64,000 nt of DNA from Actinoplanes sp. L3-i22. Its GTDB lineage: Bacteria; Actinomycetota; Actinomycetes; Mycobacteriales; Micromonosporaceae. The notes beneath the pieces were generated by a model that did not search any database, was not told the origin of the DNA, and worked only from the letters and a program-made list of their open reading frames with translations. The stretch spans positions 11,211,501 to 11,275,500 of the forward strand of contig NZ_AP024745.1 of NCBI RefSeq assembly GCF_019704555.1. The letters are read 5' to 3'. The translations under genes were made by a program, and so were the position numbers. Every line of letters starts with the position of its first letter. Within the stretch, counting starts at the first letter, position 1. Of this stretch, positions 428 to 34,609 are shown piece after piece.

Positions 428-1561
428 GTGACGTACTCGACGCTCGGTGTGATCCTGGTCTGTCTGGCAGTCGGCGCCGCCCTGGGCTGGCTGGCCGCCC
501 GGGCCCGGGCCGCGGCCGACGTCGCCCGGCTGGAGGCGACGGTGGCCGCGGCCCGCGACGGTGAGCAGCGGCTGGAGCAGTCGATGCGGGCGCTGTCCTA
601 CGAGTCGACCGCGCAGTCGCAGGAGGCGGTGGCCCGCGCCGTCGCGCCGCTGCAGGACACCCTGCGCCGCTACGAGCAGCGGGTCGCCGACCTGGAGCGG
701 GACCGCGTCGACGCGTACGCGGAGCTGCGCGAACAGGTCCGGGCGATGGGCGCGGTCTCCACCGAGCTGCGCGGCGAGACCCGGCAGCTGGTGTCGGCGC
801 TGCGCACGCCGCAGGTGCGCGGCCGCTGGGGCGAGCACCAGCTGCGCCGGATCGTCGAGGCGGCCGGCCTGCTGGAGCACTGTGACTTCAGCGAGCAGGT
901 GTCCGGTGAGACCGATCATCAGGTGGTCCGGCCCGACCTGGTGGTCCGGCTGCACGGCGGCCGCACCGTGGTGGTCGACGCGAAGGCCCCGCTGGAGGGC
1001 TATCTGTCCGCCATGGAGGCCCGGGACGAACGTGACCGGGATCTCTACCTCGATCAGCACGCCCGGCACCTGCGCGCGCACGTGGACGCCCTGTCCGCGA
1101 AGGAGTATTGGACGGCCTTCGCCTCGTCACCGGATTTCGTGGTCCTGTTCGTGCCGGCCGACCCGTTCCTGGACGCGGCGCTGCAGCGCGACCCGGTCCT
1201 GATGGAGTACGCGTTCCGCCGCAACGTGGTGCTGACCACCCCGGCCACGCTGGTCGCGATGCTGCGCACGGTCGCGTTCTCCTGGCGGCAGGAGACGCTG
1301 ACCGGCAACGCGGTCGCCGTGCACACCCTGGCGCGGGAGCTCTACGGCCGGCTGGCGACGATGGGCGAGCACGTGAGCCGGCTCGGCGTGTCGCTGAACG
1401 GGGCGGTCAGCGCGTACAACAAGGCGGTCGGCTCTTTGGAATCTCGGGTTTTGGTCAGCGCACGGAAGCTCGCCGAGATGGGCGTCTCCGACGAGGAACT
1501 GGCGCAGCCACCTCAGATCGAGATCGCCCCACGCCAGCCCCAGGCCCCGGAGCTCAGCTAG
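428..1561 (+). CDS. rmuC: DNA recombination protein RmuC
   Basis: RmuC limits DNA inversion and rearrangement in E. coli and carries a PD-(D/E)xK nuclease-like core. The 377-residue product starts with a transmembrane helix (about 5-22), continues as a predicted coiled coil (about 30-120) and then has the RmuC domain with RGRWGE (131-136) and the nuclease-like strand VVVDAK (181-186). The frame is open upstream to 209, but that extension is compositionally antisense to the neighbouring gene and lacks similarity, so I start at the GTG at 428 (a GTG at 425 is equally possible), which places the membrane helix at the N-terminus as is usual. The 3' end overlaps the convergent ispH stop by 8 bp. 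Confidence 0.9.
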
Positions 1562-2531
1562 CCGCGCGGGCCGCGGCGGCGGCTTTCATGTCGCGGCGGA
1601 GCTCCTGCGGGAGGCTGAAAGTCAGCCGCTCCTCGGCGGTGGTGAACTCGGTGACCTCGCCGAAGCCGCGGTCGGCCAGGTGCGCGAGCACCTCCATGAC
1701 CAGGTCTTCCGGCACGCTCGCGCCGGACGAGACACCGACCGTGGTCGCGCCGGTCAGCCACTCGTCCTGGATCTCGCTCGCGTAGTCGACCAGGTGCCCG
1801 GCCCGGGCGCCGGCGCCGAGCGCGACCTCGACCAGCCGCACCGAGTTCGACGAGTTGGTCGAGCCGACCACGATCACCACGTCGCACTCCGGCGCGATCT
1901 CCTTGATCACGTGCTGCCGGTTCGACGTGGCGTAGCAGATGTCGTCGCTGGGCGGCGACTGCAGCAGCGGCAGCCGGGTCTTGAGCCGGGCCACGGTCTC
2001 CATCGTCTCGTCGACCGAGAGCGTGGTCTGCGACAGCCAGACGACCTTGGCCGGGTCCCGGATCACCACGTTGGCCACGTCGTCCGGACCGTCGACCAGC
2101 TGGATGTGCGCGGGAGCCTCACCGGCGGTGCCGATGACCTCCTCGTGCCCCTCGTGCCCGATCAGCAGGATGTCGTAGTCCTCGGCGGCGAACCGCTTCG
2201 CCTCGTGGTGGACCTTGGTCACCAGCGGGCAGGTCGCGTCGATCGCCTTGAGGTTGCGCTCGCGGGCCTGGTCGTGCACCTCGGGGGCGACGCCGTGCGC
2301 GGAGAAGACCACGGTGGCGCCCTCGGGCACCTCGTAGTTCTCCTCGACGAAGATCGCGCCGCTGGCCTCCAGCGTGCTGACCACGTGCTTGTTGTGCACG
2401 ATCTGCTTGCGCACGTAGACCGGGGCGCCGTAGAGCTTCAGCGCCTCCTCGACGGTCTGCACGGCGCGGTCGACACCGGCGCAGTAGCCACGCGGCTTGG
2501 CGAGCAACACCCGCTTACGAGGTTCAGTCAC
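1554..2531 (-). CDS. ispH: 4-hydroxy-3-methylbut-2-enyl diphosphate reductase
   Basis: IspH (LytB) is the last enzyme of the MEP isoprenoid pathway; it reductively dehydroxylates HMBPP to IPP and DMAPP using a [4Fe-4S] cluster. The 325-residue product has the three cluster cysteines in their family motifs: Cys17 in RGYCAGVDR, Cys101 in [11 protein letters not shown] and Cys199 in [11 protein letters not shown]. The substrate-binding histidines are seen in IVHNKHV (about 45-50) and SAHG (about 77-80), and the catalytic glutamate region is [11 protein letters not shown]. The GTG at 2531 gives a family-typical length; the frame continues further upstream but without similarity. It is convergent with rmuC and divergent from the membrane protein that starts at 2618. 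Confidence 0.97.
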
Positions 2532-2617
2532 CCGGCAATGGTACGTGCCCGCTCCCGGCCGCCGCCCTCCTGCGATCAGTGCCACAGCCCTTGCGTTCGG
2601 GTGGTAGAGATCCATCC

Positions 2618-3109
2618 ATGACGACCGACACCAGGATCGCCGATCACCCGTACCAGGTGCTGGTCGCCGCCGGGACCGTCGCGATCGGCGCGATCGCGGT
2701 CGTGTTCACGCCGGCCGGCCTGGTGCTGCTCGCCGCCGGCGCGACGATCGCGTTCTGGCATCGGCTGCGGCCCTCGGCCGCGTTCGCCGCGGTGGGCGCG
2801 GTGGCCGGTGCGGTCGCGGGTCCGCTCGCCACCCTGGGGGTACGGACGGAGCAGCTCTGCTGCATGTTCGGCTGGTCCGAGGACCGGGGCTGGCCGTCCG
2901 CGTGGCTGTCCCGGTGGGCGTCCGCGGACACTCCGGAGCAGGCCCGGGCGCTGGCGATCGCGGGCGGCTGGCAGCCCGACCCGGTCTACCTGGCCACGGA
3001 CGTGGTGCTCTGGGCGTACGCAGGCCTCTTGGTCTTTGTGGTGATCAACCTGGCCGGGCGCGCCTACCGCGCGCACCGCGGACCTCGGCCCGCCCCGAGC
3101 GGCTCTTGA
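2618..3109 (+). CDS. Small membrane protein with CC motif, first of a paralogous pair
   Basis: The 163-residue product has about three transmembrane segments: two adjacent hydrophobic helices near residues 15-45, another near 55-75, and one at the C-terminus ([18 protein letters not shown]). Between the third and last helices is a loop with a Cys-Cys pair (LCCMFGW), an RGWPSAW block and a [14 protein letters not shown] sequence. The next gene downstream (3156-3698) has the same architecture, with CCLADHP, RRGFPFPF and ADPRYLGADLVFWA at the same places, so the two look like tandem duplicates. I chose the ATG at 2618; an in-frame ATG at 2579 would add 13 residues that do not look like a membrane protein N-terminus. 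Function unknown. Confidence 0.8.
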
Positions 3110-3155
3110 TCCGTTTCGCCCCTTCCGGGCGGTAAGGGACGGGATACTCGGGCTC

Positions 3156-3698
3156 ATGAGCGCCGAGCGGGACGACGGGTGGCCCTCGATCCCGACCGTC
3201 ACGCGGGTGATGGCCGGCTGGTTCCTCTTCGGCGTCGGGCTGCTCGACCTGGTCACCGGCGTCGACGGCGTGGTCTACGTGACGTTCCACGTGGCGGTGA
3301 CGCTCGGCGGGATGGTTCTGCTGGCGCTGCACCGGATCCGGCCGGGCCGCGCGGGCTGGATCACGGCCGCGCTGGTCACCGTCGCCGGGCTCGCGACCGG
3401 CCTGCTCGTCGACACGTCCCGGTGCTGCCTGGCCGATCATCCGCAGCGCCGGGGCTTCCCGTTCCCGTTCCTCGGCCTCGGTGACGGGATCCACGCCGAT
3501 CCCCGATATCTCGGCGCTGACCTGGTCTTCTGGGCGTGCGCCGGGCTGGTCACGCTGGTTCTCGTGCGGTTCGTCGAAAAACAGATGCCCGAGCGACGTA
3601 CGCCGGTGGACCTCACCGGATACGTGGGACGGCACTCCGAGGCACACGCCTACTCGGCGCAGCATCGCGCCGACGAAAATGTCGGTGGGCTGACCTAG
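3156..3698 (+). CDS. Small membrane protein with CC motif, second of a paralogous pair
   Basis: The 180-residue product has four predicted transmembrane helices (about 18-36, 40-58, 68-86 and 125-143). The loop before the last helix carries CCLADHPQRRGFPFP and ADPRYLGADLVFWA, matching the loop of the preceding protein (2618-3109), which argues for a tandem duplication. The C-terminal 35 residues are hydrophilic and His/Glu-rich (RHSEAHAYSAQHRADEN). The gene lies 46 bp after its paralogue and 9 bp before xseA, so all three could be cotranscribed. No catalytic motif is recognised; the paired cysteines could be redox or metal ligands, which is speculation. Confidence 0.8.
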   Translation: MSAERDDGWPSIPTVTRVMAGWFLFGVGLLDLVTGVDGVVYVTFHVAVTLGGMVLLALHRIRPGRAGWITAALVTVAGLATGLLVDTSRCCLADHPQRRGFPFPFLGLGDGIHADPRYLGADLVFWACAGLVTLVLVRFVEKQMPERRTPVDLTGYVGRHSEAHAYSAQHRADENVGGLT

Positions 3699-3707
3699 TC
3701 TGGCCGG

Positions 3708-25278: not shown

Positions 25279-28158
25279 TCAGCTCAGCTTGAAGCCGGCG
25301 AAGACCGCGGCGAGGTCCTTCTGCGACGCGTCCCAGTCGTCTTCCATGGCGTACCAGCGGATCTCGTAGGTCATGCCGCCGACCTTGAAGCCACGCACCA
25401 GGACCCGCTGCTTCCCGCCGTTGCCGGTGCTGCGGTAGTACTGCCAGTCGGCGGCCGGCCGGCCCTGGTAGGTGGTCTTCTCCAGGCTGATCTGCCCCTG
25501 GAACCCGGACGGGCGAGGATTCAGCGGGAACATCGTCGCCGCGTCTCCGCCGCCGCCGTAGTGGAAGATGTACAGCTGCCGGCCGTTCCAGTCGGCCTCG
25601 TCGGCGCTGCCACTGGCGCTCGCCGGCACCGCGACCGAGTAGCCGCTCCCCGACAGCGTCTTCCAGCCGGCCGGGACGGTCGCGGCCGGGGCGCTGGACG
25701 CCGGCGGGGCCGAGGTCGGCTTGCTCGCCGCCGGGCTGCCGGCACCCTTGCTCGACTGCGCGGCCGGGGACTTGCCGCCCACCGCCGCCGGGTTCGTCGC
25801 CTTCGGGCCGGCCTGCTTCTCGTCGCCGCCGCCGAACGCCTGCACCAGGATGATGCCGACGAGCAGCACGAACGTCAGGACGATGGACGCGCCGATGATC
25901 GCCTGGCGACGGGTCAGGGTGGTGCCGAAAATCGTGATGCCGTCGATCCGGCGGACCGGCGGGCGGGTGGAGATCGGGGTCCAGGCCGGACGGTTCGACG
26001 GGGTGAACCCGGCGCCGCCGGGCCCGCCGCCCTGGCCGCCGTTCCCACCGTGCGGACCGCCGTTCCCACGCTGCGGACCGCGGCGAGCCGCCGGCATCGA
26101 GCTGACGACGCGGGTGGCGCCGTCGTCCGGGGTGGCGGCCGGGGGCTGCGGGGCCATCGCGGCGAAGTTGACGACCGAGGTCCGGTCCTCGTCGACCGGC
26201 GCCGGGGCGGGTCGCTGACCGGGGGTCAGGGGCGTTGCCGGGCGCTGGGCGACGGCCGGCTCGGCCTTGGTGGGCTCAGCCTTGGCGGGCTCCGCCGCTT
26301 CCGGCTCCGGGTCGGGCGTCGGCTCGGCGGGCGCTTCCGCCACCGCCGGGCTCTCAGGCGTCTCGGCAACCGCCTCGGGAGCGTCCTCGACCGGCGCGAC
26401 CGGCTCGGCGCTGTCCGATTCGGCCTGGTCAACATCGGACTTCGAGGGCTCCGCCTCGTACGTCTCAATGGTGGTTTTCCCGGCCGGAGCGGTGACGCTC
26501 TCGTCGGCCTGAGCCGGCGTGGTTTCCGCCTTTTCCGACTTCTCGGTCTCGGCGTGTTCCGGCTCGGGCCGCTCCGGCTCGGGCTCGGCCGGGGTGGCCG
26601 CGGCCTCGGGCTCCGGCGCGGGCGTCTCGATCGACGGCACCTCGGCGGGCGTCGCCGGCTCGTCCTCGGCGGTCTCGGCGACCGCGTCCGGGACCGCGAC
26701 CACGGGGTATGCGCCGGTCGCGGCGGCGAGGGAGGCCTCGTGCTCCGGCGCGGCCTGCTTACGGCGGTTGGCGGCCACGTCGGCGGCGGTGAAACCGACC
26801 CGTGCGGTGTTGACCACGCGGGCGGACGGCTCAGCCGGGGTCGCGCGGCCGGGGACCGAACCCGCAGCGGTGCCGCGAGCCGGAGGCGTCTGGCGCGGAC
26901 CCGCGGGATCGGCCGGGCCACGGGTGCCGGGCGTTTCGGACGGCTTGCCGGGTTCGTCGCGGACCGCCGGGCCGTCGAGCTTCGTCGCGTCCAGCGGCTT
27001 CTGCGCCGGACGCACCGGGGGCGCGGGCGGCACCGGGTTGCCCACCGTGGCGCGGCCGGGCGCGAAACTCGACCGGCCGACCGGCGGGGCCGGCGGACGG
27101 CCCTGACCGTTATTGCCCACGCCGCCGGGACCGCTCTGCGAACGGCCCTGCGCGTCACCCGGACGGGACGCCGCCGGCGGGCGCGGCGTCGGGACGACCG
27201 GGGCGGAGCCGGTGGCGGTGACGAAACCGCTGCCCGGCAGCACCGGCGGGCCACCCGGGCCGCTCGGCAACGACGGCCGCTCACGGCCGACCCCCGGCCG
27301 GCGCATGGTCGGGCTCATCGGGAAGCTGATCTTCGCCCGGCGGCCGGCGGCCCGCGCCAGCAGCCGCTCCGCCTCGTCGGCATCGATGCGATGTGCGGGA
27401 TCTTTCCGCAACAACCCATTGAGTACGGGCTTGAGCGGGCCCGCGTTCCGCGACGGCGGAACGTTCTCGGTGGCCAGCGCGGCCAGCGTGGCGATCGCCG
27501 ACGGGCGGGCGAACGGCGACTGGCCCTCGACCGCGGCGTACAGCGTCGCGCCGAGCGACCAGAGGTCCGCGGCGGGGCCGGCGGTGCCGTCCCGGGCGCG
27601 CTCGGGAGCGATGTAGGCCGGAGAGCCGAGGACGAGACCGGTGCGCGTCACGTTCGGGTCACCGGGAACGGTGGCGAGACCGAAATCGGTCAGCACTACG
27701 CGGCCGTCGCCACCCATCAGCACGTTGCCCGGCTTGATGTCGCGGTGCACGACGCCGGCCCGGTGCGCGGCCTTCAGCGCGTTCAGCACGCCGAGGCCGA
27801 TCTCCGCGGTGCGGACCGCGTTGTACGGCCCGTCGGCGGCGAGCACGTCCTGCAGCGAGCGGGACGGCACGTACTCCATGACGATCCACGGGTCGGCGTC
27901 CGTCCGCAGCACGTCGAAGACGCGGACCACGTTGATGTTGTTGAGGCGGGCGATGGCCCGGGCCTCACGCAGGGAACGCTCGCGCATCTCCTGCCGCTCG
28001 GACGGCGTCAGCCCAGGCGGGGGGACCAGTTCCTTGATGGCGACCTCGCGGTGCAGGACGACATCGGTCGCCCGCCAGACGCGACCCATCCCGCCCTGAC
28101 CGAGCGGCGCGATGAGCCGGTACCGATCAGCGACAATGAGCGGGGGAGAAGAAGACAT
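25279..28158 (-). CDS. Receptor-type Ser/Thr protein kinase with long disordered linker
   Basis: The 959-residue product has a Hanks-type kinase domain (about 10-270): glycine loop GQGGMGRV (20-27), Lys42 in VAIKEL, HRDIKPGN (138-145), DFGLA (158-162) and APERA. A Pro/Ala/Glu-rich linker of about 470 residues follows, then one transmembrane helix (about 750-772) and an extracytoplasmic domain of about 120 residues with GYSVAVPASASGS and YEIRWYAMEDDWDASQKDL. There are no PASTA repeats. The kinase and the external domain resemble the kinase at 44945-46879, so the two are paralogues. ATG 28158 chosen; GTG 28161 is immediately before it. The gene is divergent from accE. Confidence 0.92.
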   Translation of the reverse strand: MSSSPPLIVADRYRLIAPLGQGGMGRVWRATDVVLHREVAIKELVPPPGLTPSERQEMRERSLREARAIARLNNINVVRVFDVLRTDADPWIVMEYVPSRSLQDVLAADGPYNAVRTAEIGLGVLNALKAAHRAGVVHRDIKPGNVLMGGDGRVVLTDFGLATVPGDPNVTRTGLVLGSPAYIAPERARDGTAGPAADLWSLGATLYAAVEGQSPFARPSAIATLAALATENVPPSRNAGPLKPVLNGLLRKDPAHRIDADEAERLLARAAGRRAKISFPMSPTMRRPGVGRERPSLPSGPGGPPVLPGSGFVTATGSAPVVPTPRPPAASRPGDAQGRSQSGPGGVGNNGQGRPPAPPVGRSSFAPGRATVGNPVPPAPPVRPAQKPLDATKLDGPAVRDEPGKPSETPGTRGPADPAGPRQTPPARGTAAGSVPGRATPAEPSARVVNTARVGFTAADVAANRRKQAAPEHEASLAAATGAYPVVAVPDAVAETAEDEPATPAEVPSIETPAPEPEAAATPAEPEPERPEPEHAETEKSEKAETTPAQADESVTAPAGKTTIETYEAEPSKSDVDQAESDSAEPVAPVEDAPEAVAETPESPAVAEAPAEPTPDPEPEAAEPAKAEPTKAEPAVAQRPATPLTPGQRPAPAPVDEDRTSVVNFAAMAPQPPAATPDDGATRVVSSMPAARRGPQRGNGGPHGGNGGQGGGPGGAGFTPSNRPAWTPISTRPPVRRIDGITIFGTTLTRRQAIIGASIVLTFVLLVGIILVQAFGGGDEKQAGPKATNPAAVGGKSPAAQSSKGAGSPAASKPTSAPPASSAPAATVPAGWKTLSGSGYSVAVPASASGSADEADWNGRQLYIFHYGGGGDAATMFPLNPRPSGFQGQISLEKTTYQGRPAADWQYYRSTGNGGKQRVLVRGFKVGGMTYEIRWYAMEDDWDASQKDLAAVFAGFKLS

Positions 28159-28259
28159 CACGCAGAAAATACCTGGTTCTGTCGAGCGGCCGCGAATTGA
28201 TCAGCCGAGTGTGGGACACGTGTCACCGGAAGCCGGGGCACCCGTCGTACGCTCGGCCA

Positions 28260-28533: not shown

Positions 28534-29178
28534 GTGGCTCCCAACGACGACCTATGGCGCGACGACGGTCACATCTCGGCCGACATCACCGCGATGGAAG
28601 ACTTCGCCAAAAAACTTCTGGCGTACGTCGACGACCACTACGCGCCGTCCGCCGACACGCTCGCGAACCGGATGTTGTCCGGCCTGCCCCCGACCGACAG
28701 CCAATTCGGCGAGCTGTCCGCGTTCGTGACGGTGCTGGCCTCCGCGCAGGACACCTGCCAGCAGAACATCTACAACTTCGCGAACGGCACCCACGGCTTC
28801 GCCAAAGCAGCCGAACAGGTGAGCGCGCAGTACCGAGGCTCGGACGCATTCGCCCACGCCCGCCTGTCCGACGTCGAGTCGGCGCTGGTGACGGCCGGCC
28901 TGCTGCCACCGTCGGCGACTCCGCCCGGTTCCTCATCGGCTGCCTCGTCAGGTGGGGTTTCTGACCGCCTGGCCGAGGCGTTCGCCTCCGACCATTCCGT
29001 CCCGTTCGACCCCTCGGCGGGATCGTCCCCACCGCCGCCCAGCCCAGCGTCACCGCCGCCATCGTCGTCACCGCCGCAGGCAGCGCCATCGTCGCCGGCA
29101 GCGCCGCTGTCGTCCTCGCCGTCCTCGCCGTCACCGTCCTCGCCGTCACCGTCGCCGTCAGCCAAGGGGGAGGCCTGA
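28534..29178 (+). CDS. WXG100-like secreted protein with Ser/Pro-rich tail
   Basis: The 214-residue product has two helices separated by a turn (about 18-48 and 58-98) in the size range of WXG100 proteins, although the turn reads MLSGLPP rather than WxG. After the second helix comes YRGSD (100-104), a match to the YxxxD/E type VII export signal. The rest (about 120-214) is a low-complexity Ser/Pro tail (SPSSPSPSPS). No signal peptide is seen, as expected for type VII substrates. The GTG at 28534 starts the three-gene unit; the stop overlaps the next start (TGATG). Assignment as an ESX substrate is an inference from architecture. Confidence 0.72.
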   Translation: MAPNDDLWRDDGHISADITAMEDFAKKLLAYVDDHYAPSADTLANRMLSGLPPTDSQFGELSAFVTVLASAQDTCQQNIYNFANGTHGFAKAAEQVSAQYRGSDAFAHARLSDVESALVTAGLLPPSATPPGSSSAASSGGVSDRLAEAFASDHSVPFDPSAGSSPPPPSPASPPPSSSPPQAAPSSPAAPLSSSPSSPSPSSPSPSPSAKGEA

Positions 29179-30482
29179 TGTTCGCCGAGTTCGACAACAA
29201 AGGCGGGACGGACTGGGCGCAAAAGAGCGTCCCGCAGATGTGGTCCATGCTGGCCGCCCACGACGGAACAGCCCACAAGAACTTGCTGGTCACGTGGCGA
29301 CAGTCCGCCGACCTGCTGATCGACCACCTGTCCCGGGTGAAGCGCTACCGGGACAACCTCGCCGAGGCCTGGCCCCCGGACAAGAGCCAGGCAGCCGCAA
29401 AGTACATGGACCGCCTGGACGACCTGATCGGCCACCTGAGCAGCACCTACCACGCAACCGTGGAAAACCATCGAGCCTTGGGCATCGCAACGTCCGCCCT
29501 GGTCGGCGCCCGGCTCAAGCTGGAGTCGATCTATCGACAGCACATGGCCAGCCAGCAGGAACTGGACGCCTACACCCGGAAGTTGGAGACCAATCAGCAA
29601 GTGACCGGCAAGTACCGCCCGATCACTCTGAACCCACCGACGGCGGCGCAGGCTCGCCAGGCCGAGCTCCAATTGCAGGCCCAGTCCGTGATGTCCAACC
29701 TGAGCACAGACTTGGCCCAAGCCCAGCTCAACATCACCACGCCAAAGCTTTACAGCCCCTATGGGAAGTTTTACGAAAGCGAGCCATTCAATCCGGACGG
29801 AATCGGATCAACGGCGCCTTTCCCCACCAGCAGCCCTTCGGCGGGAGGTTCGCCGACCACGCCTTCCGCTTCCTCAGCAACTCAAACCTACCAAACAAAT
29901 CCGATTTCCAATTCCTCGCACATCGCGCAATCCGCCATACAGCAGACTGGGCAGCAAGGCCCCCCTTTGAGTGGACCAACTCCGCCTTCCGCAGAGCTAG
30001 ATGTTCCCCCTTCAGTACCGACTCAACCGAACAAAGTAACTCAACTCTCGAACAACCCAAACAGCTTCATCCCAATATCAGGTACCACTCCCTTCTCGCC
30101 GCAGCCAACCTACCCTCGATCCTCGACCTACCCTCTACAGGAATCAACTAGTTCAGAACTTCGTAAAACGCAAAATCCGATTACTGGCGGAATAATCGGT
30201 GGCCCCCCGCCCACAGGAGGCACCCGTCCAGGGATGAACACCCCTCGAACTCGGCAAGTAAATCCAGTCGGCGGGATCATCGGCGGCCATGGTGCCGCTA
30301 CTGGAAGTCCCATTGGGCCCGGCAAGAAATCCGGTTCGCGCGATGACGAAACAACAAGAAAGAGCTGGGATCCGGACGACCCATGGGCCACGGAAGAAGG
30401 AATCAGCCCAATTCTGCTTCCTCCTGAAAAGAAAGCAATCGACCCAGGCCCCGCTATCGGGCTACCGCCATATGGCGGCTAA
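29178..30482 (+). CDS. PPE/EspB-like helical protein with Gly/Pro-rich tail
   Basis: The 434-residue product has a helical N-terminal region (about 15-215) with several tryptophans and WPPDKSQAAAKYMDRL (65-80), which resembles the W-x-G/P followed by SxxAA helix of PPE and EspB-type type VII substrates. From about 215 the chain is Ser/Thr/Pro/Asn-rich and then contains GGIIGGPPPTGG and GGIIGGHGAA, with an acidic Trp-containing block (SWDPDDPWATEEG) before the end. Base composition drops in the second half. It overlaps the upstream gene by the TGATG junction, and the mycosin-type protease gene starts within its last codons. No signal peptide or membrane helix. Function inferred only. Confidence 0.68.
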   Translation: MFAEFDNKGGTDWAQKSVPQMWSMLAAHDGTAHKNLLVTWRQSADLLIDHLSRVKRYRDNLAEAWPPDKSQAAAKYMDRLDDLIGHLSSTYHATVENHRALGIATSALVGARLKLESIYRQHMASQQELDAYTRKLETNQQVTGKYRPITLNPPTAAQARQAELQLQAQSVMSNLSTDLAQAQLNITTPKLYSPYGKFYESEPFNPDGIGSTAPFPTSSPSAGGSPTTPSASSATQTYQTNPISNSSHIAQSAIQQTGQQGPPLSGPTPPSAELDVPPSVPTQPNKVTQLSNNPNSFIPISGTTPFSPQPTYPRSSTYPLQESTSSELRKTQNPITGGIIGGPPPTGGTRPGMNTPRTRQVNPVGGIIGGHGAATGSPIGPGKKSGSRDDETTRKSWDPDDPWATEEGISPILLPPEKKAIDPGPAIGLPPYGG

Positions 30483-31572
30483 AGTGGCGCGACGCCTCAT
30501 CAACGCAGGGCTAGCCATGTCCGTGGCGGTGCCAAATGCGACCCTTCTCCGCGCGGACCCAGTGCGTGACGCTGAATGGTTCCTCGACTACCTCAAGATC
30601 GACAAGGCCCACTCGATAAGCATGGGCGCAGGCGTCACCGTCGCGATAACTGACACCGGCATCGACCCTCACGAGGATTTCATCCACAACATTATCCCCG
30701 GCATCGACTTGATAACAGGTGACATTGGCCAGGAAAAAGTCGACATCGACGGACACGGAACCGGGATGGCAGGCCTCATAGCCGCCCATGGGCACGGTTC
30801 CGGGGCAGGAATAATTGGCATCGCTCCACAATCGCATTTGCTGCCAATTAAGGTAGCTGAAGCCTCCTCATTACCGTCTCAGTTAGCGGCCGGAATCAAG
30901 TTTGCCGCCACGTCCGGCGCGCAAGTAATTAACGTATCGACAGGAACATCACCGTCTAAAGAGCTCATAGATTCTATAGGCCTCGCAACAAAAGAGGACG
31001 CCGTTGTTGTTGCCAGCTCAGGAAATGACTTCAATGCGTCTCAGATTGCTTACCCCGCCGCGATTCCGGGAGTACTGGCGGTAGGCGCCGTCGACCAGAA
31101 CGGAAACGTTGCATCCTTCTCTAAATCTGGACAGAACCTCGGAATTTGCGCCCCCGGAACCGATATAGTCACAACCGGACTAAATCAGAAATACAGCAAG
31201 ACTGACGGCACCTCTGCGTCCACTGCGATTGTTTCGGGGGCGGCGGCGCTGGTTCGGGCCAGGTTTCCTGGGATTTCGGCTCGCGAGACTATTCATCGGC
31301 TTACTGCAACGGCTACTGATATTGGGCCGCCTGGGCGGGACGAGCAGTGTGGGTTTGGTGTGCTCAATATTGTTAAGGCGCTGACTGCGGATGTGCCGCC
31401 GCTTGATGGTGAGGTCAGTTCCGGGGCTACGGGGGCGTCTAGCGCGGCGGAGCCTGGTGATGCTGGGCCTGGGCTTAAGAACGGGATTCTTGGGGGGATT
31501 GCCGCCGTACTTGCGGGTGGGGTTTTGGTTGGCTTTCTTGTTGTTCGGCGGCGGGGGCGGAAGCCGGTTTGA
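30472..31572 (+). CDS. Mycosin-type S8 subtilase, membrane-anchored
   Basis: The 366-residue product has a short N-terminal secretion segment (ARRLINAGLAMSVAVP, about 6-21), a subtilisin-like domain and a C-terminal transmembrane helix (about 333-353, GGIAAVLAGGVLVGFLVV) with a basic tail. The catalytic triad is visible: Asp in ITDTGIDP (about 57-64), His in DGHGTGMAGLIAAHG, and Ser in GTSASTAIVSGAAALVRA. These features match the mycosin proteases (MycP) of type VII systems. Two in-frame TTA leucine codons occur at 30871 and 30883. Hand-counted GC at 30841-30900 is 31/60, far below neighbouring genes. ATG 30472 overlaps the previous gene by 11 bp. Confidence 0.85.
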   Translation: MAAKVARRLINAGLAMSVAVPNATLLRADPVRDAEWFLDYLKIDKAHSISMGAGVTVAITDTGIDPHEDFIHNIIPGIDLITGDIGQEKVDIDGHGTGMAGLIAAHGHGSGAGIIGIAPQSHLLPIKVAEASSLPSQLAAGIKFAATSGAQVINVSTGTSPSKELIDSIGLATKEDAVVVASSGNDFNASQIAYPAAIPGVLAVGAVDQNGNVASFSKSGQNLGICAPGTDIVTTGLNQKYSKTDGTSASTAIVSGAAALVRARFPGISARETIHRLTATATDIGPPGRDEQCGFGVLNIVKALTADVPPLDGEVSSGATGASSAAEPGDAGPGLKNGILGGIAAVLAGGVLVGFLVVRRRGRKPV

Positions 31573-31773: not shown

Positions 31774-31860
31774 TGGTGGTGACTGGGTTGGTGGGATTAC
31801 CGGTGGAAGATGGGGCTTGCGTGCACTTTTGGGTGGCCAGGGCTTGTAGTCTCATTTTTT

Positions 31861-32475
31861 GTGCAGAGTGACAACGCGTATCGGCTGATTCTTGCCTCGG
31901 CCAGCCCTGCTCGGCGGGCACTGCTCACCGGGGCCGGGATTGATGCTGAGGTGATCGTCAGTGGGGTGGACGAGAGCGTCGTGGAGGCGGAGGACGCCTA
32001 CACGTTGAGCCTTGCGCTGGCTCGGATGAAGGCTCGGACCGTGGCGGCGGAGCTGCCTGCGGATCCGGCGGCGCTGGTGCTCGGGTGTGACTCCGTGCTG
32101 GCCTTCGAAGGGGAGATCTTCGGGAAGCCGGCCGATGGGCGGGAAGCGGCTCAGCGGTGGATGGCGATGCGGGGGAAGTCCGGGGTGCTGCACACCGGGC
32201 ATCACCTGACCGGGCTGGTCAGCGGGCGGCAGGCGGAAGCGGTCGGGACGACCGTGGTGCACTTCGCCGACGTGACCGATGCGGAGATCGAGGCGTATGT
32301 CGCTTCCGGGGAACCGCTTCAGGTGGCCGGTGCGTTCACGCTGGACGGGCGGGGTGGGGCGTTCGTGGAGCGGATCGAAGGGGACCCCGGCAATGTGATC
32401 GGGCTGTCGCTGCCGCTGCTTCGCACGCTGCTCGCCGAGATGGGTGTTCCGATCATCTCCCTCTGGCGCCGCTGA
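31861..32475 (+). CDS. maf: Maf family nucleotide pyrophosphatase
   Basis: Maf proteins hydrolyse non-canonical nucleoside triphosphates to monophosphates and act as house-cleaning enzymes linked to cell division. The 204-residue product has the N-terminal LILASASPARRALL (about 7-20), LVLGCDSVL (about 77-85, with the general-base Asp), FGKPADGREAAQRW, and TGHHL, followed by LDGRGGAFVERIEGDPGNVIGLSLP. GTG 31861 starts the protein in the family-normal place. In other actinobacteria maf lies between accE and the alpha subunit gene, as here once the inserted module is ignored. Confidence 0.93.
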   Translation: MQSDNAYRLILASASPARRALLTGAGIDAEVIVSGVDESVVEAEDAYTLSLALARMKARTVAAELPADPAALVLGCDSVLAFEGEIFGKPADGREAAQRWMAMRGKSGVLHTGHHLTGLVSGRQAEAVGTTVVHFADVTDAEIEAYVASGEPLQVAGAFTLDGRGGAFVERIEGDPGNVIGLSLPLLRTLLAEMGVPIISLWRR

Positions 32476-32857: not shown

Positions 32858-34609
32858 GTGCGGAAGATATTGATCGCCAACCGCGGCGAGATCGCCCTCC
32901 GGGTCATCCGGGCCTGCAAGGACGCCGGCCTCACCAGCGTCGCCGTCTACGCCGACAGTGATCGCGACGCGCCACACGCCCGGCTCGCCGACGAGGCGTA
33001 CGCACTGGACGGCGAGACCGCCGCCGACACGTACCTCCGGATCGACAAGTTGATCGACGTGGCGACCAGGGCCGGCGCTGACGCCGTACATCCGGGTTAT
33101 GGGTTTTTGTCAGAAAATGCCGAATTTGCCGAGGCGGTCGAGACAGCGGGCCTGACCTGGATCGGCCCGAGCCCGCAGGCGATCCGCGACCTCGGCGACA
33201 AGGTCACCGCCCGGCACATCGCGCAGCGGGCCGGCGCGCCCCTGGTCCCCGGCACCCCGGACCCGGTCGCGAACGCCGGCGAGATCGTCGCGTTCGCCGA
33301 GGAGCACGGCCTGCCGGTGGCGATCAAGGCGGCGTTCGGCGGCGGCGGCCGCGGCCTGAAGGTGGCCCGCACGATCGAGGAGATCCCGGCGCTGTTCGAG
33401 AGCGCGACCCGGGAGGCGATCGCCGCGTTCGGCCGGGGCGAGTGTTTCGTCGAGCGCTACCTGGACCGCCCGCGGCACGTCGAGGCCCAGGTCATCGCGG
33501 ACACGCACGGCAACGTGGTGGTGGTCGGCACGCGGGACTGCTCGCTGCAGCGCCGCCACCAGAAGCTGGTCGAGGAGGCCCCCGCGCCGTTCCTCAGCGA
33601 GCTGCAGAGAAAAGCGATCCACGACAGCGCGAAGGCGATCTGCCGCGAGGCCGGCTACTACGGCGCCGGCACCGTGGAGTACCTGGTCGGTCAGGACGGG
33701 ACGATCTCGTTCCTGGAGGTCAACACCCGGCTGCAGGTGGAGCACCCGGTCAGCGAGGAGACCGCCGGTATCGACCTGGTCCGGGAGCAGTTCCGGATCG
33801 CGGCCGGTGAGCCGCTGGCGATCACCGAGGACCCGGAGCCGCGCGGGCACGCGATCGAGTTCCGGATCAACGGCGAGGACGCGGGTCGCGGCTTCCTGCC
33901 CGCGCCGGGCACGGTCACCGCGCTGACCTGGCCGTCCGGCCCGGGCGCGCGGGTCGATTCCGGGGTCGAGGCGGGCAGCGTCATCGGCGGCAACTTCGAC
34001 TCGATGCTCGCCAAGATCATCGTGACCGGCGCGACCCGGGAGCAGGCCCTGGAGCGTTCCCGGCGGGTGCTCGACGAGACCGTGATCGAGGGCCTCGCCA
34101 CGGTCCTGCCGTTCCACCGCGCGGTGGTCCGCGACGAGGCGTTCACCGCCGAGCCGTTCACCGTGCACACCCGGTGGATCGAGACCGAGTGGAACAACGA
34201 GGTCAAGCCGTTCCTCGCGCCCGCCGCCGGCGGCGGCGAGGCCGCCGAGCGCGAGACCGTCGTGGTCGAGGTCGGCGGCCGGCGCATCGAGGTCCGCCTC
34301 CCCAAAAACCTGATTGGGGGTACGGCCGGAACCCCGTCCCCGCAGAAGCGCGCCGCCCGCCCACGCGGCGGTGCCGCGGCCGCCACGGCGAGCGGGGACA
34401 GCCTGACCGCCCCGATGCAGGGCACCATCGTCAAGGTCGCCGCGCAGAACGGTGACCAGGTCAACGAGGGTGACGTGATCGTCGTCGTCGAGGCGATGAA
34501 GATGGAGCAGCCGCTCTCGGCGCACAAGGCCGGCACGGTCGACGGCCTGTCGCTGGAGGTCGGCGCCACGGTCACGGCCGGCGCCGTGGTCTGCACGATC
34601 GAGGACTAG
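32858..34609 (+). CDS. Acyl-CoA carboxylase alpha subunit (biotin carboxylase-BCCP)
   Basis: This chain carries the ATP-dependent biotin carboxylase and the biotin carrier. The 583-residue product starts [17 protein letters not shown] (about 2-18), has ATP-grasp elements [15 protein letters not shown] (about 154-168) and [16 protein letters not shown] (about 285-300), and ends in a biotinyl domain with EAMKMEQPL, the biotinylated residue being Lys548. A disordered Ala/Arg linker (about 480-510) separates the two. The partners are the beta (22301) and epsilon (28260) subunits, and biotin is attached by BirA (20012). GTG start at 32858. Its stop overlaps that of the convergent TetR gene by 3 bp. 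Confidence 0.95.

What the first reader, a model, noticed from the sequence alone, without database searches (positions are those of the whole stretch)
28534..31572. Orphan type VII-like substrate/mycosin cassette inserted in the acyl-CoA carboxylase locus
Seen: three overlapping genes encode a two-helix protein with YxxxD and a Ser/Pro tail, a PPE/EspB-like helical protein with a Gly/Pro tail, and a membrane-anchored subtilase with intact Asp, His and Ser motifs. GC falls to 31/60 in 30841-30900, against 46/60 in 33241-33300. Known: mycosins (MycP) are essential parts of ESX systems, normally beside eccB/eccC/eccD. Inference: this is a mobile or satellite cassette that uses an ESX machine encoded elsewhere, or a protease-substrate pair with its own role. 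The lack of any ATPase or channel gene nearby makes it unusual.
Basis: partly seen in the sequence, partly recalled or inferred. Interest (0 to 1): 0.75.

Follow-up and report, generated by a model that had tools for sequence, protein, structure and literature searches.

The report
Orphan PE-PPE-mycosin secretion unit
Three overlapping genes in a soil actinomycete look like a pair of partner proteins made for export by a type VII secretion machine, plus their own membrane protease; the set has long been kept at this site in its bacterial family, although such protein pairs have been called unique to mycobacteria.

Summary
Observation confirmed: p1 (28534-29178), p2 (29178-30482) and a mycosin (30472-31572) overlap end to end; the nearest EccC/EccD lies about 398 kb away. 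p2's N-terminal domain has the PPE fold; p1 is a PE-like hairpin whose YxxxD is kept in 37 of 37 genus copies. It is not a recent insertion: the genes lie between the same kinase and maf in the genus (kinase 35/35, maf 34/35) and in 14 of 20 loci from 19 other genera, and relatives share the low GC. p2-mycosin pairs recur at other sites, and homologous PE-PPE-mycosin blocks follow EccC in ESX loci of five genomes of a related genus and one of another family. These mycosins form one tree group (61 rows, UFBoot 100/SH-aLRT 98), though three rows I had expected there fall outside. p2 ends in a tail (W..EGV.PV..P..DPGP.IG) found directly upstream of a mycosin in 26 of 28 hits in 16 genomes (19 of 21 not used in the profile). 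Best reading: an ESX-related substrate pair exported by an ESX machine in trans and handled by its own mycosin at the tail; export and cleavage are inferred. New variant of a known kind; 'mobile cassette' rejected.

The parts
25279..28161 (-). Divergent Ser/Thr protein kinase; conserved left neighbour (context, not part of the unit)
   Evidence: Pfam Pkinase 6.9e-42; found beside the unit in 35 of 35 other genus genomes and, together with maf, in 14 of 20 other-genus loci
28534..29178 (+). p1, PE-like helical hairpin with Ser/Pro-rich tail
28831..28845 (+). YxxxD type VII export motif of p1 (YRGSD, residues 100-104)
   Evidence: Y and D in 37 of 37 genus copies, window included
29178..30482 (+). 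p2, PPE-fold protein with long Pro/Gly/Ser linker and conserved C-terminal tail
29370..29378 (+). WPP at the helix 2/3 turn of p2 (residues 65-67), where PPE proteins carry WxG
   Evidence: W65 invariant in 105 rows of A4; position between helices 30-64 and 71-142; letters checked
30366..30461 (+). C-terminal tail of p2: WDPDDPWATEEGISPILLPPEKKAIDPGPAIG, shared by the unit's PPE-like proteins
   Evidence: 6 columns invariant in 23 chosen sequences; 26 of 28 genomic hits directly upstream of a mycosin, 19 of 21 if the 7 rows used in the profile are left out
30472..31572 (+). mycosin-like S8 protease with C-terminal membrane segment
   Evidence: TIGR03921 259.6 bits (cut-off 278.75); D61/H95/S248 invariant in 27 sequences; tree group with other unit mycosins
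31486..31542 (+). predicted membrane anchor of the mycosin
   Evidence: Best 19-residue hydropathy 2.48 from residue 339; C-terminal hydrophobic segment in 37 of 37 genus copies
31810..32475 (+). maf; conserved right neighbour (context)
   Evidence: Found after the unit in 34 of 35 other genus loci; in the last (L076) the contig ends first

Best explanation
The three genes are an old unit made of a type VII substrate pair and a dedicated mycosin. p1 (PE-like, with YxxxD) and p2 (PPE-like) pair as a helical bundle; the resident ESX machine, encoded elsewhere, recognises the pair and exports it; and the unit's own membrane-anchored mycosin, the product of the third gene, acts outside the membrane on p2's conserved C-terminal tail, as a processing protease or docking partner. 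The unit is related to EccC-PE-PPE-mycosin blocks inside ESX loci and also exists as detached copies. Shown here: anatomy, fold of p2, YxxxD conservation, long presence at this site, relation to ESX-embedded blocks, a separate mycosin tree group, and tail-mycosin linkage. Inferred: pairing of p1 with p2, export by ESX, cleavage or docking at the tail, and which ESX is used (the EccD-EccC-mycosin locus is the best candidate).
For: PPE fold of p2. Hairpin and invariant YxxxD of p1, spaced as in PE25, whose motif is 87-YATAE (PMC3935865 passage) and whose residues 7-91 align to p1 17-104. No N-terminal hydrophobic signal (over 1.3) in any of 37 p1 or 38 p2, so Sec export is unlikely. Homology to PE-like and PPE-like proteins next to EccC, one of which scores PF00823 PPE at 2.5e-5, 24.8 bits against a cut-off of 26. 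One tree group for unit mycosins and for mycosins that follow PE-PPE in ESX loci (61 rows). Tail directly upstream of a mycosin in 26 of 28 hits, 19 of 21 without the profile's own rows. Synteny in genus and family. Translational coupling: 1-nt overlap in 32 of 37, and p2-mycosin gaps of -11 to +3 in 36 of 37. Distance co-variation of p2 and mycosin after controlling for three neighbours: partial r 0.52, permutation p 0.001, 31 of 34 loci used. EccB in 199 of 200 family genomes. The two of 16 genomes with a single EccC hit at E up to 1e-140, G159 and G091, both carry the unit.
Confidence: 0.6

Rival explanations
1. The unit's mycosin mainly serves as a stabilising subunit, in trans, for ESX loci that lack their own mycosin; p1/p2 are ordinary substrates and the tail is unrelated to the protease.
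For: Mycosins stabilise ESX membrane complexes independently of proteolysis (PMC5082899, passages). 9 of 52 EccC loci in 16 genomes have no mycosin row within 25 kb, 3 of them in the window's genome, two of these with EccC, EccD and EccB.
Against: G159 and G091 have one EccC hit, with a mycosin beside it, and still keep the unit. The unit mycosin goes with tail-bearing p2-like genes; whether it also goes with mycosin-less ESX loci was not tested.
Confidence: 0.2
2. The three proteins work without any ESX machine, for example as an envelope stress or signalling module with the divergent kinase: p1/p2 cytoplasmic or exported otherwise, the protease acting on envelope proteins.
For: A kinase is the conserved divergent neighbour; no EccC/EccD within 398 kb.
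Against: Invariant YxxxD, PPE fold, no Sec signal, relatives embedded in ESX loci. No kinase hit lies in the ten detached loci L158-L167.
Confidence: 0.13
3. A mobile or satellite cassette that recently inserted here.
For: Low GC at 29.5-31.3 kb; tandem duplications at the site in L083, L084 and L171; detached copies nest among this site's mycosins in the tree, so units have been copied between sites.
Against: Same site in the genus and in 14 of 20 loci of other genera; low GC3 of the mycosin gene in all 35 genus loci that have it, window included (0.52-0.80, against 0.94 for the window's accA).
Confidence: 0.05

Closest known systems
Mycobacterial PE-PPE pairs (PE25-PPE41, PE8-PPE15)
   Same: Adjacent genes; PE-like hairpin with YxxxD; PPE fold over the whole N-terminal domain of p2
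   Different: No Pfam PE/PPE hit in the window's proteins, no N-terminal PE or PPE motif, WPP instead of WxG, conserved C-terminal tail, own mycosin, and it lies in Micromonosporaceae, whereas print calls the families absent outside Mycobacterium (PMC1660551, passages; PMC12209268, passages)
EspB and its protease MycP1
   Different: EspB carries both the WXG motif and the signal in one chain (PMC11217815 passage); here there are two genes plus a mycosin with no ESX genes beside them
EccC-PE-PPE-mycosin block in ESX loci of genus g26, probably Micromonospora (L255-L259), and in G240 of another family (L260)
   Same: Homologous PE-like, PPE-like and mycosin genes in the same order
   Different: There the block follows EccC in an ESX locus, which in L255-L257 also has a first mycosin; the p2 tail profile does not match
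esxB-esxA-mycP cluster without ecc genes noted in Micromonospora lupini (Milup08_40380-40382, PMC4182475, section read)
   Same: A three-gene cluster of two substrate-like genes and mycP apart from the machine genes; possibly a printed sighting of such a unit
   Different: Named as Esx proteins there; not analysed, and I did not check that it is the same unit
LXG-Lap substrate complexes of type VIIb systems
   Same: Substrate plus small helical partner (PMC11217815 passage); a Lap chain is among weak p1 matches
   Different: Bacillota; toxin domains and no mycosin (from general knowledge and the same passages)

Membership tests
PE family (mycobacterial) | About 100-residue two-helix hairpin | tested here: met
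   Helices 11-48 and 59-99; the fold match to PE25 alone is not decisive
PE family (mycobacterial) | YxxxD/E at the end of the domain | tested here: met
   37 of 37 genus copies
PE family (mycobacterial) | Pro-Glu near the N-terminus / Pfam PE model | tested here: not met
   Window p1 starts MAPNDDLWRD, though some relatives start MIPE; no PE model hit in the window's p1 or among 25 members
PPE family (mycobacterial) | About 180-residue PPE helical fold | tested here: met
PPE family (mycobacterial) | WxG between helices 2 and 3 | tested here: not met
   W65 invariant but followed by PP, not xG
PPE family (mycobacterial) | N-terminal PPE motif / PF00823 over cut-off | tested here: not met
   No hit in window p2; 105 members give only weak WXG100_2 (6), EspB_PPE (1), WXG100 (1) among other chance-level families; an ESX-embedded relative in G240 reaches 24.8 of 26 bits
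PPE family (mycobacterial) | EspG chaperone partner | tested here: inconclusive
   0 of 23 genomes match PF14011, but no control genome rang
Mycosin (MycP) | S8 protease with intact Asp/His/Ser | tested here: met
Mycosin (MycP) | TIGR03921 equivalog cut-off | tested here: inconclusive
   Window 259.6 of 278.75 bits; two large subtilases of the same genome score 258.0 and 250.1; 7 of 15 unit mycosins in the 16 genomes pass
Mycosin (MycP) | Groups with ESX mycosins apart from other subtilases | tested here: met
   97 rows against 4 other S8 rows of the window's genome, SH-aLRT 97; only four outgroup rows, and the root was placed on them by me
Mycosin (MycP) | C-terminal membrane anchor and N-terminal signal | tested here: met
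   C-terminal segment 37 of 37; N-terminal hydrophobic segment over 1.3 in 31 of 37, the window's own scoring 1.17
Mycosin (MycP) | Encoded with eccB/eccC/eccD | tested here: not met
   Nearest EccC/EccD about 398 kb away
Mobile genetic element | Sporadic distribution and variable site | tested here: not met
   Same site in the genus and in 14 of 20 loci of other genera; one same-genus genome of 36 (G088) had no p2 match
Anti-phage defence system | Match to a defence model beyond generic kinase/subtilase domains | tested here: not met
   p1 and p2 none; the subtilase matches one subtilase model, and the kinase many models, the strongest over the kinase domain

The most novel reading that the evidence does not exclude
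PE-PPE pairs are older than mycobacteria, and in Micromonosporaceae they travel with a private mycosin as a plug-in unit; the W..EGV.PV..P..DPGP.IG tail is the recognition or cleavage tag by which a mycosin knows its own PPE partner after export.
Probability: 0.4. Interest if true: 0.8.

Novelty: new variant of a known kind. Interest (0 to 1): 0.6.

Why it matters
Only EspB was named as a mycosin substrate in the 2016 paper whose passages I read (PMC5082899), so how mycosins choose substrates is open. A unit that puts one PPE-like substrate, a conserved tail and one mycosin side by side, away from the machine, makes that question directly testable in non-pathogenic actinomycetes. It also conflicts with the printed view that PE and PPE are confined to Mycobacterium (PMC1660551; PMC12209268) or were added to a plasmid-borne ESX cluster (PMC4791881, passages).

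Tried and rejected
Mobile cassette: rejected for this site, although units have evidently been copied between sites. Defence system: p1 and p2 match no model; the others match subtilase and kinase models. Polymorphic toxin: no toxin domain in p2; PMC3482391 notes mycosin-like proteases near one toxin family (passage). Direct sequence matches of the p1, p2 and ESX-embedded PPE-like profiles to solved structures: none at E up to 1. Strong TIGR03921 hits of the window's genome far from ESX genes (L104, L105, L107) are 605-872-residue subtilases without a p2-like gene beside them; two of them score 258.0 and 250.1 bits, about as much as the window's mycosin. A count of 14 of 52 EccC loci without mycosin was too high because I had pasted only rows of 219 bits and more; with all 119 rows it is 9 of 52. 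EspG search: uninformative. Tree rows: 13 of the 34 genus mycosins went in, 21 rows from 20 other-genus loci, 20 'paralog' rows (10 of them, L158-L167, chosen because p2 matched there), 10 rows labelled EccB-type of which four have no EccB hit. The 61-row group was named after looking at the quick tree and then checked in a fuller tree; L188 (a 'paralog' row with no p2 neighbour) and two L266 rows that I had labelled ESX-embedded fell outside and were left out of that test. Distance co-variation used 31 of 34 loci (three lacked a control gene); tandem second copies, L087 (misplaced p2 start) and L099 (no mycosin) were dropped. Not-in-print claim: searches (40 of 58 papers listed; 10 of 20; 15 of 55) gave no paper describing this unit in what I saw; I read passages or one section only, and the M. 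lupini table may be an unrecognised sighting.
Full report
What is there. The three ORFs are as described. p1 and p2 share one base, and p2 overlaps the subtilase by 11 bp. Across the genus copies that I extracted, p1/p2 overlap by one base in 32 of 37 and p2-to-mycosin spacing is -11 to +3 in 36 of 37, which suggests translational coupling. Pfam gives only Peptidase_S8 for the subtilase and nothing significant for p1 and p2; NCBIfam gives TIGR03921 mycosin at 259.6 bits, below its cut-off of 278.75. No p1 (0 of 37) or p2 (0 of 38) has an N-terminal hydrophobic stretch over 1.3; one p1 has an internal one over 1.6; the mycosin has a C-terminal hydrophobic segment in 37 of 37.

Age and place. 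p2 finds a match in 36 of 60 genomes (the 35 other genomes of the genus and the window's own) and in 0 of 24 from other families of the order. In the 35 other genus genomes p1 and p2 are present in 35 and the mycosin in 34; the divergent kinase lies on the left in 35 and maf on the right in 34, the last contig ending first. With a profile, 147 of 200 family genomes and 32 of 44 genera match; one same-genus genome of 36 (G088) does not. Of 20 loci fetched from 19 other genera, 14 have kinase-p1-p2-mycosin-maf in order, 3 have only the maf side (L147, L150, L156; in L147 and L156 the order of the three genes differs) and 3 have neither neighbour. A scan by kinase gave 80 named loci; 8 of them hold p1: 6 have the full order (Actinoplanes, Paractinoplanes, Micromonospora, Asanoa), Symbioplanes lichenis lacks the mycosin, and one is cut off. 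In the order as a whole, 49 of 298 genomes match, 46 of them in this family. The low GC is not a sign of recent arrival: GC3 of the mycosin gene is 0.52-0.80 in all 35 genus loci that have it, window included, against 0.94 for the window's accA. The genes evolve fast: mean distance 0.49-0.56 against 0.07 for the kinase and 0.23 for maf.

Machines in the same genome. The window's genome has five EccC loci. One has EccB, EccD and a mycosin, one has EccD and a mycosin, two have EccC-EccD-EccB but no mycosin within 25 kb, and one is divergent. The nearest EccC/EccD is about 398 kb from the unit. EccB occurs in 199 of 200 family genomes, so its presence does not discriminate. Of 16 genomes, G159 and G091 have one EccC hit each (E up to 1e-140), and both carry the unit, so a type VII route there would have to use that ATPase unless a more distant EccC exists.

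Relatives of the unit. In the 16 genomes, 54 mycosins pass the TIGR03921 cut-off: 30 lie within 25 kb of EccC/EccD, 7 are this site's, and 17 are elsewhere. labels 32 rows (219 bits or more) as away from EccC/EccD and from this site; I fetched 20 of the 32: 9 have a p2-like gene directly upstream, 6 have EccB beside them, 5 neither. With ten further loci chosen by p2 (L158-L167) that makes 19 detached p2-mycosin units; a p1-like gene was detected in 10 of the 19, clearly (43-64 bits) in 6, and no Ecc gene was found in the stretches fetched. L265 (G095) has the PE-like gene and the mycosin, but its PPE-like gene was not detected. G240, from another family of the order, has EccC-PE-PPE-mycosin with EccB nearby (no EccD identified; p1-like only 15 bits); its PPE-like protein reaches PF00823 at 2.5e-5 (24.8 of 26 bits). 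Profile comparison links p1 to the embedded PE-like proteins (E 2.3e-12, with the YxxxD aligned) and p2 to the embedded PPE-like proteins (E 8.8e-17). The mycosins of this site, the detached units and the embedded blocks are one side of a branch (61 rows; SH-aLRT 97, UFBoot 100/SH-aLRT 98), apart from the other ESX mycosins, the EccB-type mycosins and four other subtilases. That set was named after the first tree; L188 and two L266 rows fall outside it. Within it, this site's mycosins are not one group: 9 genus rows and the window fall in one 11-row set with one other-genus row, four genus rows elsewhere, and some detached units nest among site rows. So units have been copied between sites, or the tree lacks resolution there.

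The tail. All 23 p2 tails that I aligned, from this site and from detached units, share W, G, PGP and G. A profile of the tail alone found 28 places in the 16 genomes; 26 lie directly upstream of a mycosin. Seven of the 28 are rows of the profile itself; without them it is 19 of 21 (overlap worked out from coordinates). Of the two others, G148's is followed by a mycosin split over two frames and one is a weak hit with a stop inside. The embedded PPE-like proteins do not match the tail profile, though G240's ends in QHPGPALGRS. Since p2 and mycosin are inherited together, this linkage is strong evidence of a unit and only suggestive of tail recognition. p2 and mycosin distances stay correlated after removing three neighbour genes (partial r 0.52, permutation p 0.001).

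How it most likely works. By analogy with PE-PPE pairs, whose YxxxD and WxG sit side by side as a composite signal (PMC7028111, passages), p1 and p2 should pair and be exported folded. Mycosins sit on the outer side of the machine and have two roles, complex stability and processing; only EspB is named as a substrate (PMC5082899, passages; PMC11217815, passages). The simplest reading of the gene order, tail and separate group is that this mycosin handles its own PPE partner. Two species that keep p1 and p2 without a mycosin at the site (L099; L268) show that the protease is not always needed in cis; whether they have one elsewhere was not tested.

What is known. [quoted passage not shown] PMC12209268 calls them unique to mycobacteria (passages); PMC4791881 places their gain on a plasmid ESX cluster and reports ESX-4 clusters in nine species of orders without mycolic acids (passages). 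PMC4182475 lists an esxB-esxA-mycP cluster without ecc genes in M. lupini (section read), possibly such a unit; not checked. Automatic database names for some p1 and p2 relatives are 'PE family' and 'PPE family'. Because the N-terminal PE/PPE motifs, the WxG glycine and the Pfam cut-offs are not met, I call the pair PE/PPE-like and do not file it in the mycobacterial families.

Noticed in passing
L173:3704-6376 and 447-3707; L174:12896-15586: Two ESX loci of the window's genome (9.43 and 2.58 Mb) have EccC-EccD-EccB, an ~890-residue protein without any Pfam match and, at least at 9.43 Mb, a beta-helix plus EccA-like AAA fusion, but no mycosin within 25 kb.
   Followed up: partly
L186, L189, L191-L194: A mycosin beside EccB but far from any EccC found: the family's core ESX seems split over two loci.
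   Followed up: partly
L255:7469-8287: A SUKH-3 immunity-type protein sits between EccB and EccD in an ESX locus of genus g26; genes of similar size sit there in L256 and L265 (not identified).
   Followed up: no
L099 (G001) and L268 (Symbioplanes lichenis): p1 and p2 are kept but the mycosin is missing; maf follows p2 directly, and in L099 the tail is altered (EGG for EGV).
   Followed up: partly
L083, L084, L171: Tandem duplications of the unit at the same site, in L084 without a second p1 and in L083 with further mycosin-like fragments.
   Followed up: no
genus g34: The g34 genomes have only a weak EccB (best E about 1e-45 to 1e-58) and none appears in the match list; a possible link between loss of an ESX type and loss of the unit.
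   Followed up: no
L264 (G226, genus g26): A remnant of p2 with its tail remains but no mycosin hit beside it: a decayed copy of the unit.
   Followed up: no
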